A DNA stretch of 64,000 nucleotides from an uncultured Aquimarina sp. Lineage in GTDB: Bacteria; Bacteroidota; Bacteroidia; Flavobacteriales; Flavobacteriaceae. Of this stretch, positions 2,625-39,264 are shown piece by piece. The translations under genes and the position numbers were made by a program. The notes under the pieces are model-generated. The model made no database searches. It was not told the origin of the DNA and was given only the letters and a program-made list of their open reading frames with translations. The DNA lies in assembly GCF_947492405.1 (NCBI RefSeq), contig NZ_CANLMP010000002.1:186001-250000 (forward strand), read 5' to 3'. How positions within the stretch are numbered: the stretch's first letter is position 1; each line of letters starts with the position of its first letter.

Positions 2625-3695
2625 TTAAAGGTCAAAACGCAACCCCAAAGACACATTGTTCTGATCTACTAATGCATTTTGGAAAATTGGAGATAAATCA
2701 TACTTTGCGTATAATGACATGTCACCGAAACCTATATAGGTACTTAATCCATATATCAGATCACTTGTATTATAGTTTCTTTTTATTTTGTCTTTTACTC
2801 GATCACCGTCTTCTTTATATTTCAATTTCTGACGTGTACTAATATTTGCGCCAACATAACCTCCCAATCCAATCCTAAACTTTCCTACTGTTGAGAACCT
2901 GAGTCTTTTCTCTGTTTCTATTTTTTTGGAAGGCCCAAATTCCAGATGTACCGGAACCACTATATTATCCATTCTAAACTTTGATTTATCTAACTCTACC
3001 CTAAATTCCTGAAGTTCTGTTTGATCTCCATTTTCCACAAAATACCTGTTATCTGTAGGCTTTAATCCATTAGATTGATAGGAAATCCCATATTTTACTC
3101 TCATGAAATTCGAATTTTTAAACACCCTCGTTTTCCATGCCCAACCTAACTCAAAAAAACGACTTCCAGCGATCTTATAATCAGAATCATCCAGCGATTG
3201 CCCATCAACTATAGCATTATTCAATCCAAAGGCAACTACAAGATCTGAGTATGTGCGTCGGTCATATCTTACCTTTGTTTCCTTTCCAGTATTAACATTA
3301 ATACCGAATAAAATATCTCCATCATCCTTATCTTTAGCTCCAAGACCTATTGAAATTTTACCTTTATTAGCATTTAAATAATCGCTATTATTCCTTCCTA
3401 TTAAAGCAATTTGATTATCAATAATTGCCAACCTGTTTTCTATATTTAGTGCATGTTTTTCGGCTGCAACTTCTTTTAGCGTTTGTGCCTTTTCTTTAGT
3501 TATTTCTCCTTTTACTAATCTTTCATTAATAGCTTCTACTTCTTTTTTAAGTCCTTCTTTTTCTGAAATTATTATTTCTTCTTTTTCCTGTTTTAATTTT
3601 TCAATTTCAGCCGAATTATCGTTTTCCTGCGCATTTAGAAAATGAGCACTAAGCGTCATTGTCGTTAATACGACATACATTATTATTGTTCTCAT
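2625..3695 (-). CDS. Outer membrane beta-barrel-like protein with N-terminal coiled coil
   Basis: 356 residues. A signal peptide (cleavage near NAQ/EN, residue 22) is followed by a charged coiled-coil segment (about residues 27-95, rich in E/K heptads) and then a region of alternating aromatic and polar residues ending in LGLRFDL, the terminal-Phe-X type of end found in outer membrane barrels. Specific family not recognised. It is the third gene of the sigma / anti-sigma operon, 70 bp after the anti-sigma gene, and so is a likely target of envelope-stress control. A hairpin lies between the two genes. Confidence 0.65.
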   Translation of the reverse strand: MRTIIMYVVLTTMTLSAHFLNAQENDNSAEIEKLKQEKEEIIISEKEGLKKEVEAINERLVKGEITKEKAQTLKEVAAEKHALNIENRLAIIDNQIALIGRNNSDYLNANKGKISIGLGAKDKDDGDILFGINVNTGKETKVRYDRRTYSDLVVAFGLNNAIVDGQSLDDSDYKIAGSRFFELGWAWKTRVFKNSNFMRVKYGISYQSNGLKPTDNRYFVENGDQTELQEFRVELDKSKFRMDNIVVPVHLEFGPSKKIETEKRLRFSTVGKFRIGLGGYVGANISTRQKLKYKEDGDRVKDKIKRNYNTSDLIYGLSTYIGFGDMSLYAKYDLSPIFQNALVDQNNVSLGLRFDL

Positions 3696-33659: not shown

Positions 33660-34613
33660 TTAAAATACTTCTGAAGCTATTTTCTTTATATTATCCGACT
33701 TACCCATTGAATAATAGTGTAAAACCGGAACTCCGTATTCCATCAATTCTTTTGATTGTTGTATAGCAAATTCAATTCCTACTTCTCTAATTTCTTTATT
33801 TGTTTTACAACTTTCTACTGCTCTTACCAATTCATCAGGCATATCCAATTTAAAAACTTGTGGTAATAGTTGCAAATGTCTTTTTACTGCTACTGGTTTG
33901 ATTCCTGGAATGATAGGCACGTCAATACCTGCTTCTCTCGCTTTCTCTACAAAGGCAAAATATCTCTTATTGTCAAAAAACATTTGTGTTACCACATAAT
34001 CTGCACCTGCATCTACTTTGTCTTTTAGTCTTCTAATATCAGAATCCATAGATGGTGCTTCCATATGTTTTTCTGGATATCCTGCCACTCCAATACAAAA
34101 ATCGGATTGGTTATCACTCTCTATCACCTCATGAAGAAATCGCCCATTATTCATATTTACGATTTGTTCTACCAATTCATTAGCATAACAATGGCCTCCA
34201 TTTGTGGGATTAAAATACTTTTCTTCCTTCATAGCATCGCCACGAAGCGCCATTACATTATCTATTCCCAAATAATGACAATCTACAAGTAGATATTCAG
34301 TTTCTTCTTTTGTAAAGCCACCACAAAGTACATGTGGAATAGTATCCACATTATATTTATGTGTTATTGACGCACAAATTCCTACAGTTCCTGGACGCAT
34401 ACGAGTCAACTTTTTATCCAATAAGCCTTCTCGATCGATATAAATAAATTCTTCTCTAGAAGTAGTTACATCAATAAACGGAGGATTAAATTCCATCAAA
34501 GGATCTATATTATCATAGAGTTCCTGTATACTTCTCCCTTTTTGTGGTGGTATTAACTCAAAAGAAAATAAGGTCTTTCCTTTTGCATTTTTTATGTGAT
34601 CTGTAACCTTCAT
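33660..34613 (-). CDS. metF: 5,10-methylenetetrahydrofolate reductase
   Basis: 317 residues, usual length. FAD-dependent reduction of methylene-THF to methyl-THF, the methyl donor for MetH. Seen: FSFELIPPQKGRS with the catalytic Glu, HLLCGGFTKEET-like segment, NVMALRGD, GVAGYPEKHMEAPS, and VTQMFFDNKRYFAF. It follows metH by 35 bp, under the SAM-I riboswitch at 39.3-39.5 kb. Confidence 0.95.
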   Translation of the reverse strand: MKVTDHIKNAKGKTLFSFELIPPQKGRSIQELYDNIDPLMEFNPPFIDVTTSREEFIYIDREGLLDKKLTRMRPGTVGICASITHKYNVDTIPHVLCGGFTKEETEYLLVDCHYLGIDNVMALRGDAMKEEKYFNPTNGGHCYANELVEQIVNMNNGRFLHEVIESDNQSDFCIGVAGYPEKHMEAPSMDSDIRRLKDKVDAGADYVVTQMFFDNKRYFAFVEKAREAGIDVPIIPGIKPVAVKRHLQLLPQVFKLDMPDELVRAVESCKTNKEIREVGIEFAIQQSKELMEYGVPVLHYYSMGKSDNIKKIASEVF

Positions 34614-34648
34614 TAATGTATAGTTCTAAGTTGGTAATTTTCTTTTAG

Positions 34649-37600
34649 TTAGTCAATAAGATTTGGGTTGAGCCACTTTTTAGCGTATTCAAAGTCAATA
34701 CTCTTTCTTTCTGCAAAATCTCTTACCTGATCTTCTTTTATTTTACCTAATCCAAAATATCGGGCTTCAGGATTTGCGAAATAGTATCCCGACACTGATG
34801 CCGCAGGCCACATTGCTAATCCTTCAGTTAGCTCAACATTTATTTTTTCTTTGACTTGTAAAACTTCCCAGATTGTAAGTTTTTCCAGGTGATCTGGACA
34901 AGCTGGATATCCTGGAGCTGGTCTAATCCCTTTGTATGATTCTTTAATTAACTCATCATTAGTGAGTTGTTCTTCACTAGCATATCCCCAGTCTTCTTTA
35001 CGTACTTTTTTATGTAAATACTCTGCAAAAGCTTCTGCTAATCGATCCGCCAATGCTTTGATCATTATTGAATTATAATCATCGTGATCTGCTTCAAAAG
35101 CTTCAGCCAGCTCTTTGGTTCCAAAACCCGTAGTTACGCAAAAACATCCCATATAATCTTGTCTATTCGACTCTTTTGGTGCAATAAAATCTGCTAGAGC
35201 AAAATTAGGTTTACTTGCATGCTTCTTCAATTGTTGTCGGAGTGTTCTGAATCTAAAATTACCCGCACTTCGACTTGGCTCAGTGTAAGGGTATTTAATT
35301 TCAATATCATCATCATTAACTGTGTTAGCTTCAAACAAACCATAAACCGCTTTGGCGCCTAATAGTTTTTCATCAAACACTTTTTGCAATAACTCTTGCG
35401 CATCTTTAAACAAGGAAGTAGCTTGTTCTCCAACCACATCATCCGTTAAAATTGCTGGATACTTACCATGTAAATCCCAAGACCTAAAAAATGGTGTCCA
35501 ATCAATAAAAGGTTCTAATTTTTTCAAATCAAAATCTTCAATAACCTCTACTCCTAGTTTATTAGGTCTAGTAATTTCAGAAAAAGACCAGTCAATCTTA
35601 TATTTATTTATTCTTGCTTCTTCTATGGATAAATATTCTTTCTGTTTGGTTCTTTTCAGAAAACCTTCTCTAAACTTTTCATAATCCTCTTTAAGGTCTC
35701 CCACATACTTTTGATTGCTTCTCTTATTAAGCAAATCTCCAACAACCGTAACTGCTCTGGAAGCATCATTTACATGGACTACGGCATTCTTGTATTGCGG
35801 ATCAATCTTAACTGCTGTATGTGCTTTAGATGTAGTAGCACCACCAATCAATAATGGAACTTTAAAATTTCTGCGCTCCATTTCTTTTGCTAAAAACACC
35901 ATTTCATCAAGAGATGGAGTTATTAATCCACTTAGCCCAATGACATCTACTTGTTCATCAATCGCCGTTTGAATAATTTTCTCTGGTGGAACCATTACTC
36001 CTAGATCCACAATCTCGTAGTTATTACAGCCCAGAACTACTGATACTATATTTTTACCAATATCGTGAACATCTCCTTTTACAGTAGCCATTAAAACCTT
36101 ACCAGCCCCTCCCGTCCCCAAAGGGGAAGCTTTTTCAATAGTTTCTAAAATTTCATCTAATACAAAATCAATTTCATTTATTACTTGTTTATTTGTAAAA
36201 CGAATAACTTTATACCCTTCTTTCTCCAACCATTCGGTTCGTTCTTTATCACTTGATTTGTTTTCAGGAAGTTGATGAATTGAACCGTCTATTTCAATTA
36301 TTAAGTTTTCTTTCAAACAAATAAAATCTGCTATATAAGAACCTATTATATGTTGTCTCCTGAATTTGTATCCATTCAAATTTTTACCACTTAAAGCTTT
36401 CCAAAGAAAAGATTCCGCTTCTGTTGGTTGGTTTCGCATTCTTCCTGCATGTTCCTTCATTAATCCGTACAAAACGGGATCTGCGGTTTTCCAGTGCTGC
36501 TCCCCCTTTGGGGGTTGGGGGGCATTCTTTTTTTTCTCTTCCTCTATATATGGCAAAAGATATGCTACAGCTTTTTTCATAACCCTTGCAGATTTTACTA
36601 CTTGTGGCAAGAACATTTTACCAGATCCAAAAAGGTCTCCAACTACATTCATACCTACCATCAAGTTACCTTCAATTACTTCTATAGGCTTTTCAGCAGC
36701 TTGTCTTGCTTCTTCTACATCCTCTACGATATATTGATCAATTCCCTTTACTAAAGCTCTTGTAATGCGATTTTGTAGTGATTCTTCTCTCCAGGAAAGA
36801 TCAACTGTTTTTTCCTTACTAGTTCCAACAACGGTTTCTGCAAAGTCTAATAATCTTTCTGTGGCATCATCTCTGCGGTCCAGAATTACATCTTCTACAT
36901 GCTCAAGCAGGTCTTTTGGAATATCATCATATACTTCGAGCATCGCAGGGTTTACAATACCCATATTCATACCAGCTTTAATAGCATGATATAAAAACAC
37001 TGAATGCATCGCTTCCCGAACCGGGTTATTTCCTCTAAATGAAAACGAGACATTACTTACTCCACCACTTACACTACAGTGTGGAAGATTCTCTCGAACC
37101 CATCTTGTTGCTTCAATAAAATCGATAGCATTTTTTCGATGTTCTTCCATTCCTGTTGCTACAGGAAAAATATTTAGATCAAAAATGATATCTTCAGGAG
37201 GAAATTTTACCCGATTTACAAGAATATCATAGGATCTTTTAGAAATTTCTATTCGACGTTCGTAATTATCGGCTTGACCAACTTCATCAAAAGCCATAAT
37301 AATAACTGCAGCTCCATACCTTTTTATTTTCTTAGCATGAGCAATAAATTCTTCTTCTCCTTCTTTTAAGCTAATCGAATTGACTACGCATTTCCCTTGA
37401 ACAACTTGTAGTCCAGCTTCAATAATATCCCATTTAGAACTATCGATCATAATAGGTACTCTGGCAATATCAGGTTCTGCCATTATGAGATTAAGAAATC
37501 GTACCATGGCTTCCTCACCATCGATCAGACCATCATCCATATTGATATCGATCACCTGTGCGCCACCTTCTACCTGATGTCTTGCAATATCTAAAGCTTC

Positions 37601-37789
37601 ATCAAATTTTTCTTCCTTAACTAACCGTAAGAACTTTCGGGATCCTGCTACATTAGTTCGCTCCCCAACATTGATAAAGTTAGTCTCTGCTGAAACAATC
37701 ATAGGTTCCAGTCCAGAGAGTTTTAGGTACTTTCTAGTTGATGGTTGAGAGTTATCTGTTGATAGATTATGTGGTTTATTTTCTATCAT
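34649..37789 (-). CDS. metH: Methionine synthase, pterin/B12/activation part, with in-frame DUF559 insertion
   Basis: 1046 residues. Order: methyl-THF-binding domain (about 25-300, [16 protein letters not shown]), cap domain (about 340-420, [34 protein letters not shown]), then about 140 foreign residues (423-561), then the B12 domain ([18 protein letters not shown], base-off His ligand) and the SAM activation domain (to 1046). The homocysteine-binding half is a separate gene at 38.1-39.2 kb, the normal Bacteroidota split. The insertion is a DUF559 domain (see 36105-36523) in the cap-B12 linker and keeps the frame. Without it the protein would be about 906 residues. Probably still active, since catalytic parts are intact. 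Confidence 0.95.
36105..36523 (-). mobile_element. In-frame DUF559-coding element inside metH
   Basis: 419 bp bounded by inverted repeats of about 25 bp: 36499-36523 and 36105-36130. Each end is itself a palindrome with the core CCCCAAAGGGG. It is read through in the metH frame, encoding [40 protein letters not shown] and [36 protein letters not shown], i.e. DUF559, a Vsr-like/PD-(D/E)XK nuclease-fold family. E. coli MetH has only a short linker here. The GC-rich ends stand out from the AT-rich gene. No transposase is encoded; the domain itself might act in mobility, but that is speculation. Confidence 0.8.
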
Positions 37790-38144
37790 CCCTTATTTTT
37801 TTATAATAGTTTATAAATCCACTTAATAGCTTTTTACATTTTAAAATCTGGATAAAAAGATTTTCATGATCTTTAGTTTGAATATAATCCTGATCCAAAG
37901 CCAAATAAGATTGCGTCTCTAATTCGTATAATGACCCTCTTGAAACATGTAAAAACTGCAACGTATCCGCTGAAGTTCTTCTTCCACAACCTTCAGCTAT
38001 ATTTGATGGTATGGAAACTGCACTTCTTCTCATCTGACTTGTTAATCCATATAATTCATCCTTAGGAAACTCTTTTGTTACTTCATACAAAACATTAACC
38101 AATATTCTTGATTCTTTCCAAACCTCTAATTCTACGTACTCCAT
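37776..38144 (-). CDS. Four-helix-bundle (S23-type) protein
   Basis: 122 residues: [54 protein letters not shown], the standard opening of the four-helix-bundle family first known from intervening sequences of 23S rRNA. It sits between the two halves of methionine synthase, overlapping metH by 14 bp downstream and 3 bp after the N-terminal half gene. Family members are found scattered in Bacteroidota as likely selfish insertions; biochemical function unknown. Confidence 0.92.
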
Positions 38145-38147
38145 AAA

Positions 38148-39152
38148 CTAAAAACTATCAACTGTTAACTTTCTTGGTTCATACTTTTTAGCTAAATCAG
38201 CAATTGCTTTTATATGTTCTGGTGTTGTCCCACAACATCCTCCAACAATATTTACCAAACTTTTATCCATATATTCTTTTATCTGACCTACCATTTGTTC
38301 TGGTGTTTCATCATACTCCCCAAATGCATTTGGTAAACCTGCATTAGGATGTGCAGAAACTCCAAAACTAGCTTTTTGCGCTAAAACTTCTAAATGTGGA
38401 GTTAATTGACTAGCTCCTAAAGCACAATTAAAACCTACAGATAACATTGGAATATGTGATACCGAAATCAAAAAAGCTTCTGCAGTTTGTCCAGATAATG
38501 TTCGACCACTTGCGTCGGTTATCGTACCACTTATCATAATTGGAACTTCTATATTTCTCTCGTCTTTAACCTCTTCAATTGCAAAAAGTGCTGCTTTTGC
38601 GTTTAACGTATCAAAAATAGTTTCTACCAAAAGAATATCGGAACCTCCATCAAGCAAAGCTTCTACTTGCTCTTTATAAGCAATCCTAAGTTCGTCAAAA
38701 GTAACTGCTCTAAAACCAGGGTCATTTACATCAGGTGACATACTTGCTGTTCTATTGGTTGGACCAATGGATCCTGCTACAAAACGAGGTTTATGAGGTT
38801 CTTTTGCCGTAAACTCCTCCGCAACTTCTTTTGCAATTTTAGCTGATTGAAAATTCAGTTCATACACTAATTCTTCCATTTCATAATCAGCCATGGCGAT
38901 TGTAGTTCCGGAAAACGTATTAGTTTCTACAATATCGGCTCCAGCTTCAAAATACAATCGATGTACTTCTTTAATAGCTTCAGGCTGAGTAATGCTTAGT
39001 AAATCATTATTTCCTTGAACCGGAATGGGCCAATCTTTAAATCGTTCTCCTCTAAAATCTTCTTCAGTAAACTTATGCCGTTGTAACATAGTTCCCATGG
39101 CTCCATCGAGTACCAAAATTCTTTCTTCCAGTATTTTTTTTATGTCTTTCAT
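38148..39152 (-). CDS. metH: Methionine synthase, homocysteine-binding half
   Basis: 334 residues. Homocysteine S-methyltransferase barrel: [10 protein letters not shown] at the start, ETNTFSGT, the zinc-binding NCALGASQ Cys and the [11 protein letters not shown] pair of Cys. It supplies the homocysteine site for the B12 protein encoded by the second metH gene. First gene after the SAM-I riboswitch. Confidence 0.95.
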
Positions 39153-39190: not shown

Positions 39191-39264
39191 TCCCCCTTGA
39201 CCAGCCTTGACTGGCCATTCCCCCTTAAAAAGTGGGAAAACCCAATTTATCCTTTAAAAAAGGA
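39191..39264. repeat. GC-rich palindromic repeat in the metH leader
   Basis: Contains the direct repeat TCCCCCTTGA (39191-39200) / TCCCCCTTAA (39219-39228), hairpins CCAG..CTGG (39201-39214) and GGGTTTTCCC (minus strand), and CCTTTAAAAAAGG (39251-39263). Its CCCCCTT-rich style resembles the ends of the DUF559 element in metH, but the sequences are not the same. It lies between the riboswitch and the metH(N) ATG. Confidence 0.45.

What the first reader, a model, noticed from the sequence alone, without database searches (positions are those of the whole stretch)
36105..36523. Mobile DUF559 element inserted in frame inside methionine synthase
About 140 residues of DUF559 (Vsr-like nuclease fold) sit in the cap-B12 linker of MetH and are read through in frame. 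The DNA ends are inverted repeats of about 25 bp, each a palindrome with CCCCAAAGGGG, GC-rich in an AT-rich gene. A protein-coding, splice-free insertion tolerated by an essential-pathway enzyme is like an intein without splicing motifs or a coding palindromic element. The inserted nuclease-fold domain could itself drive spread.
Basis: partly seen in the sequence, partly recalled or inferred. Interest (0 to 1): 0.85.

Follow-up and report, generated by a model that had tools for sequence, protein, structure and literature searches.

The report
Mobile nuclease domain inside bacterial enzymes
A 419-base piece of DNA with palindromic ends sits inside this bacterium's methionine-synthase gene and adds a predicted nuclease domain to the enzyme in frame; 27 of the 31 matching genes compared in its genus lack that domain, inserts of the same kind sit in frame in many unrelated bacterial enzymes, and they likely spread by cutting insert-free gene copies, which would make this an intein-like parasite that is apparently never spliced out.

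Summary
Window 36105-36523 is a DUF559-coding insert with GC-rich palindromic ends, in frame between the two B12 domains of MetH. Of 31 genus metH genes matched, 4 carry it, 26 are continuous and 1 holds a short GC-rich stretch; the carriers are scattered on the host-gene tree. The window and G028 inserts are closer at silent sites than their host flanks, and four close RecG pairs, from two clusters, agree. Embedded DUF559 with P/G-rich ends occurs in MetH, LeuRS, IleRS, MetRS, RecG, MutS, CinA, HsdR, HsdM and others; 28 of 265 proteins examined hold two or three, and trees reject one origin per MetH site. Six conserved residues persist in 286 of 292 copies; fold and profile both hit homing endonuclease I-Bth0305I. 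No splicing domain or intron family was found. Best reading: an unspliced, protein-coding, homing-like element. Translation, cutting and target are inferred. No published description was found in the held library.

The parts
36105..36523 (-). the element, from GCCCCCCAACCCCC (36523 downward) to GGGACGGGAGGGGC (36105)
   Evidence: sequence; absent from empty metH genes of the genus
36499..36523 (-). end on the N-terminal side: C-run tail plus palindrome CCCCAAAGGGG (core 36503-36513)
36105..36130 (-). end on the C-terminal side: palindrome CCCCTTTGGGG (core 36116-36126) plus G-run tail, inverted copy of the other end
36137..36457 (-). DUF559 domain, aa 445-551 of MetH2, predicted nuclease fold; conserved E459, Q479, D488, E499, D501, H505
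   Evidence: Pfam E 1.5e-35; conservation; model and structure matches
34649..37789 (-). host gene metH2 (pterin-binding, cap, B12-binding and activation domains of methionine synthase)
36557..36775 (-). B12-binding_2 (cap) domain just upstream of the insert
   Evidence: aa 339-411
35822..36103 (-). B12-binding domain just downstream of the insert
   Evidence: aa 563-656

Best explanation
Window 36105-36523 is an apparently unspliced, protein-coding mobile element: DNA with palindromic ends that adds a DUF559 domain (predicted nuclease) in frame to its host enzyme, and it likely spreads by cutting insert-free copies of the host gene and being copied into the break. Shown by the calls: the insert is in frame; most genus relatives are empty; inserts of the same kind sit in many unrelated genes; carriers are scattered on host trees; in some species pairs the insert is closer than its host flanks; and copies have changed sites inside genes. 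Inferred: (a) the whole fusion is translated and the enzyme tolerates it in a flexible linker; (b) the DUF559 domain breaks or nicks DNA at or near the empty site, and repair against a filled copy carries the element in, with loss of a few linker codons; (c) the palindromic ends act in rarer moves to new sites and, being nearly free of stops, keep the host frame readable; (d) lost copies leave short GC-rich remnant peptides.
For: Scattered presence: 4 of 31 genus metH genes carry it; the host DNA tree needs 4 changes (bootstrap 5-95% range 4-4), and carrier L060 is sister to empty L030 at 100/99, while the genus inserts form one group in the domain tree (SH-aLRT 89). Transfer: window against L060 has dS 0.40 in the insert and 1.08/1.12 in the host, four-fold sites the same 34/43 against 119/234, Fisher p 0.0007. 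RecG: at least 9 of 149 genomes carry an insert at one place; at least 5 changes are forced on the host tree; 4 of 51 carrier pairs printed have inserts over 3 points more alike than either flank. Many hosts, split by the domain. Site changes: 28 of 265 proteins with 2-3 copies, AU p 0.0008 and 0.0001 against one clade per MetH site. Nuclease kept: 286 of 292 copies with all six residues; insert dN 0.05-0.15 against dS 0.40-1.46. Kinship: I-Bth0305I by fold (E 2e-4) and by profile (E 3.2e-7). No intein domain or intron family. Host enzymes stay complete: metH, recG, ileS and leuS models match over cut-off in two or three stretches.
Against: Cutting, target and translation are untested. The other five genus metH pairs show no clear excess of insert likeness in nucleotide identity, and the window-L060 likeness is concentrated in the last ~210 nt. 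The four RecG pairs come from two clusters. 10 of 32 end pairs are no better than controls and 5 more are matched by 2-7 controls. Junctions slide by several residues along the MetH linker, so one exact target is not evident. Most listed DUF559 matches are short stand-alone frames: 86 of 106 under 250 aa in the phylum sample. The window's genome has only one copy with such ends among 4 DUF559 matches (ends by reading). One of 80 named records is out of frame after its right end. No carrier phage or plasmid close to it was found. Multi-copy proteins rank first, so 28 of 265 is not a frequency.
Confidence: 0.66

Rival explanations
1. The ends are REP- or RPE-like palindromes moved in trans by another enzyme, and DUF559 is cargo caught between two palindromes that is tolerated because it folds harmlessly.
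For: Ends with tail plus hairpin in many copies; short P/G peptides of the same look without DUF559 in the same proteins; a tail-plus-hairpin pattern at 17 sites in 6 of 14 genomes against 2 control sites, at least five of them beside known DUF559 copies. REP insertions into coding sequences are described (PMC3733652, passages).
Against: Cargo need not keep six catalytic-type residues in 286 of 292 copies; lineages stay with host sites (13 changes against 51 shuffled); the pattern is low-copy (at most 8 sites in one genome).
Confidence: 0.16
2. Ordinary homologous recombination of host-gene alleles spreads the insert between species; the nuclease plays no part.
For: Same-site distribution and patchy likeness need only recombination across conserved flanks.
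Against: Flanks next to the insert are not co-transferred to a like degree in the close pairs; changes of site and of host gene are not explained; nor is the conservation of the nuclease residues.
Confidence: 0.11
3. The domain gives its host enzymes a useful function, such as DNA contact or repair, and is a normal accessory domain.
For: Purifying selection on the insert and wide occurrence in MetH and LeuRS of Flavobacteriaceae and relatives.
Against: Hosts share no function (B12 enzyme, tRNA ligases, helicases, restriction enzymes, tryptophan dioxygenase, CoA transferase); close relatives do without it; up to three copies in one protein.
Confidence: 0.06

Closest known systems
Inteins with homing endonucleases
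   Same: In-frame insert with a homing-type nuclease in conserved, often essential proteins; scattered presence at fixed sites.
   Different: No intein or splicing domain; the insert lies in a variable linker, not in an active site; P/G-coding palindromic ends; apparently stays in the protein.
Rickettsia palindromic elements (RPE)
   Same: Palindromic, stop-free DNA read in frame in unrelated genes (PMC10969869, passages).
   Different: RPEs are about 150 bp by that review; this element is 419 bp and codes for a predicted nuclease.
REPtrons and TIRtrons (REP with tyrosine transposase)
   Same: A coding gene flanked by inverted tail-plus-hairpin repeats (PMC3733652, passages).
   Different: The gene is DUF559, not a Y1 transposase, and the unit is read through as part of a host protein.
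EDxHD homing endonuclease I-Bth0305I
   Same: Catalytic-domain fold and sequence kinship; EDxHD is one of six homing families (PMC3943268, passages).
   Different: I-Bth0305I carries long extra DNA-binding parts; the DUF559 insert is the catalytic module with no other Pfam domain.
Stand-alone DUF559 / Vsr-like proteins (NGO0050, Caulobacter VsrA)
   Same: Same Pfam domain or fold; 3hrl is the best structural match; VsrA, with a DUF559 domain, is linked to DNA damage (PMC12907096, passages).
   Different: Free genes, not embedded in another protein.

Membership tests
Intein | Hint/intein splicing domain in the insert | tested here: not met
   Pfam scan of MetH2 finds none; splice-junction residues were not tested beyond reading that the insert starts with Ala
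Intein | Insert removed from the mature protein | not testable with these tools
   needs proteomics
Group I or II intron | Intron RNA structure at the insert | tested here: not met
   Rfam at 34500-38200: three matches with E up to 1, all below gathering scores, none an intron; one (RF00519, E 0.021) lies on the palindrome at 36495-36542
Rickettsia palindromic element | Palindromic DNA inserted in frame in unrelated genes | tested here: met
   ends are clear in 17 of 32 copies
Rickettsia palindromic element | Sequence kinship to a known RPE family | not tested
   no RPE was compared
REPtron / RAYT element | Y1 tyrosine transposase between the repeats | tested here: not met
   the element codes for DUF559 only
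EDxHD/Vsr-fold homing endonuclease | Catalytic-domain fold and conserved acidic/His residues | tested here: met
   residue-by-residue match to the named EDxHD motif was not made
EDxHD/Vsr-fold homing endonuclease | Cuts the insert-free allele | not testable with these tools
   biochemistry needed
Homing element | Scattered presence at a fixed site, with transfer between species | tested here: met
DDE-type insertion sequence or MITE | Target-site duplication | tested here: not met
   by eye on filled and empty metH and recG junctions; linker codons are replaced instead

The most novel reading that the evidence does not exclude
A separate class of mobile genetic element widespread in Bacteroidota: unspliced homing elements that live as a permanent extra nuclease domain inside essential enzymes, use stop-poor palindromic ends to stay readable in any gene, and spread because the host enzyme itself carries the homing nuclease.
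Probability: 0.6. Interest if true: 0.93.

Novelty: categorically new. Interest (0 to 1): 0.87.

Why it matters
Mobile elements in essential genes are generally taken to need splicing (inteins, introns) or to be small passive repeats. This one would do without splicing: it is tolerated as a domain, carries a predicted homing-type nuclease and recurs in many enzyme families. It would show a direct, testable route by which new domains enter conserved proteins, explain many odd DUF559 'fusions' named as tRNA ligases or methionine synthases, and offer a nuclease family whose target can be read from its insertion sites.

Tried and rejected
The AlphaFold model of whole MetH2 is poor (mean pLDDT 68.4, pTM 0.40) and was not used. 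The long end of L063 has 5 matches in its genome, two of them its own ends, so it is not a high-copy repeat. The third exact CCCCAAAGGGG of the window's genome (L005) is solitary and was not pursued. The named-genome scan with the mixed alignment failed; the single window insert was used instead, which biases those 80 loci towards MetH. In one search my label 'scar' wrongly covered 15-nt empty sites; only L132-L135 (21-42 nt) are short residues, and carrier counts are unaffected. In one search, 20 of 106 listed matches lie in open frames of 250 aa or more; L180 (domain at the N end, masked bases after it), L182 (domain at the C end, no palindromic ends) and L183 (simple repeats) are not credible embedded copies, leaving 17. 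The window row of A1 starts one codon late, without effect on the domain. The AU groups were named after I had seen the quick tree. Papers: PMC3943268, PMC10969869, PMC12907096 and PMC3733652 were seen as passages only; one homing-endonuclease paper whose id one search gives and one recalled by DOI are not held. 'No published description found' rests in the held open-access library; of the 14 papers holding 'DUF559' I saw titles and abstract starts, and passages of one.

Full report
What is there. metH2 (34649-37789, minus strand, 1046 aa) codes for the pterin-binding, cap (B12-binding_2), B12-binding and activation domains of methionine synthase; the homocysteine part is a separate gene, 38148-39152. 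At aa 423, between cap and B12 domain, begins a stretch that the empty genus genes lack: A-P-Q-P-P-K-G-E, a DUF559 domain (aa 445-551, E 1.5e-35) and S-P-L-G-T-G-G-A. NCBIfam's metH model matches over its cut-off in two stretches, the best ending at aa 422. The ends are GC-rich (0.68 and 0.67 against 0.36 for the gene), hold CCCCAAAGGGG exactly and are inverted repeats of each other; the inverted-repeat score beats all 271 controls of the locus. No MetE (PF01717) is found in the genome, and this gene is the only match in it, so the only methionine synthase recognised by these searches carries the insert.

Empty sites. In the genus, 31 of 33 genomes gave a metH match: 26 continuous, 4 with the insert (window, G010, G015, G028) and 1 (G003) with a short GC-rich stretch instead. 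One of the 26, L039, also has a GC-rich linker that looks like a remnant. On the host-gene DNA tree (flanks only, 31 rows) the four carriers need four changes (bootstrap 5-95% range 4-4; four is the most possible), and carrier L060 is sister to empty L030 at 100/99. The genus inserts nevertheless form one group in the domain tree (SH-aLRT 89). Window and L060 differ at silent sites by dS 1.08 and 1.12 in the two host flanks but 0.40 in the insert; four-fold sites agree in 34 of 43 (insert) and 119 of 234 (host), Fisher p 0.0007. The likeness is concentrated in the last ~210 nt of the insert, and the other five genus pairs show no clear excess in nucleotide identity. I read this as at least one transfer of insert sequence between species at a fixed site.

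A second host gene. In the genus of G223, 149 of 150 genomes matched the RecG site; at least 9 carry the insert, all at one place (six genomes with only a weaker match were not looked at). On the host tree of 52 genes (12 carriers) at least five changes are forced by well-supported branches. Of 51 carrier pairs printed, four, from two clusters of close relatives, have inserts more than 3 points more alike than either flank, for example 99.1% against 92.7 and 92.9%; in most distant pairs the insert is less alike than the host, so slow evolution of the insert does not explain it. Four genes carry short residues of 21-42 nt; one of them (L133) keeps a recognisable left end.

Many hosts. Three protein searches (1004, 456 and 389 proteins; one listed each) and two genome searches find DUF559 inside other proteins. 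In the listed proteins the domain has more than 40 aa on both sides in 236 of 240 and in 102 of 120. Pfam or NCBIfam coordinates show host domains on both sides, or one host domain split, in MetH, LeuRS (two sites), IleRS, MetRS, RecG and an ISP-type restriction enzyme; HsdM, HsdR (twice), Eco57I-type enzymes (twice) and a UvrD-type helicase; CinA, a MiaB-type enzyme, adenine deaminase, tryptophan dioxygenase, RibD, MutS, an AMP-binding enzyme and a CoA transferase. In an M23 peptidase, two DNA methylases, a nucleotidyl transferase and a protein with an RNase H1 N-terminal domain a named host domain lies on one side only. In the order sample 17 of 36 listed matches lie in open frames above 800 aa; in the phylum sample 20 of 106 lie in frames of 250 aa or more, 17 of them credible, and the rest are short stand-alone frames. 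All 80 named records closest to the window insert have the domain in a frame of at least 400 residues; 76 of 84 domains found in them lie at the same MetH place, in genera from Aquimarina and Maribacter to Marivirga and Lutibacter; one record, L224 (Flavobacterium akiainvivens), is out of frame just after its right end.

Ends. Copies share a build: an outward C-rich tail and a hairpin, clearest as CCTCACCCCCAACCCCTCTCC-loop-GGAGAGGGG in L079, inverted at the other side (similar in L084, L157, L188). Of 32 copies tested, 17 beat every control window pair, five are matched by 2-7 of roughly 270-290 controls, and ten are not distinguishable (seven RecG, two LeuRS, one UvrD-type helicase). The tail is read in different frames at different sites (P-Q-P in MetH, P-N-P in RecG, T-L-D-P in HsdM). 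A tail-plus-hairpin pattern is found at 17 sites in 6 of 14 genomes against 2 sites for the reversed pattern, so free copies exist but are few.

Movement between sites. 28 of 265 proteins examined carry two or three copies (the search ranks such proteins first, so this is no frequency). Copies cluster by host gene (13 changes against 51 shuffled), but MetH copies do not sort by site: P0003's second copy is sister to its first, P0002's two likewise, and the site-1 copies of P0015, P0020 and P0029 lie inside the site-2 clade. One clade per site is rejected (AU p 0.0008 for site 1, 0.0001 for site 2; groups named after a first tree). Lineages thus mostly stay with a site and now and then jump, often within one gene.

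The domain. Six conserved residues (E459, Q479, D488, E499, D501, H505) are all intact in 286 of 292 copies, 10 of which are stand-alone. The insert model (mean pLDDT 81.6) matches a DUF559 protein (3hrl, E 2.8e-8) and next the catalytic domain of homing endonuclease I-Bth0305I (E 2e-4, TMt 0.80); the sequence profile alone finds the latter at E 3.2e-7. I-Bth0305I belongs to the EDxHD class, one of six homing families (PMC3943268, passages). Close copies in phage or plasmid records were not found: 3 phage and 34 plasmid records, all under 60% identity.

How it likely works. Inference: the element is translated with the host enzyme and tolerated because it sits in a variable linker between conserved blocks (empty linkers vary in length and letters). 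The nuclease cuts or nicks empty copies of the same gene; repair copies the element in and may trade a few linker codons. The palindromic ends serve rarer moves to new places and keep the frame readable. Loss by internal deletion leaves short remnants. Shown: frame, distribution, likeness beyond the host flanks, site changes, conservation, kinship. Not shown: cutting, target, translation, lack of cost.

What it is not. No splicing domain, no intron family, no target duplication by eye, no Y1 transposase. It works like a homing element and like a Rickettsia palindromic element (PMC10969869, passages) at once; membership in either fails or is untested on a defining point. I rate it categorically new because no kind known to me combines an unspliced in-frame life with its own predicted homing nuclease; a cautious reader may prefer 'new variant' of in-frame palindromic elements.

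Noticed in passing
window 37776-38144: A four-helix-bundle gene (PF05635, '23S rRNA intervening sequence protein') lies between the two metH genes; the genome has 13 such genes, and by a motif search a similar ORF lies upstream of metH2 in 9 of 80 named loci.
   Followed up: partly
L062, L039 (metH) and L132-L135 (recG): Short GC-rich stretches at the insertion point that look like remnants of lost elements.
   Followed up: partly
L224 about 3391-3423: Second-site metH copy of Flavobacterium akiainvivens runs out of frame right after the element's right end, at a G run; real frameshift or assembly error.
   Followed up: no
L063 (G038 contig 14): An metH copy whose ends are about 100 bp long, with two palindromes each, coding throughout.
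   Followed up: partly
L183 900-1715: DUF559 beside tandem repeats reading TGTPPEEGNKTAL over and over, a different GC-rich palindromic repeat.
   Followed up: no
L005 (G000 C1:306927-306937): The only other exact CCCCAAAGGGG of the window's genome, solitary.
   Followed up: no
window 39192-39206: C-run tract CCCCCTTGACCAGCC upstream of metH1, of the look of another repeat; no second copy in the window.
   Followed up: no
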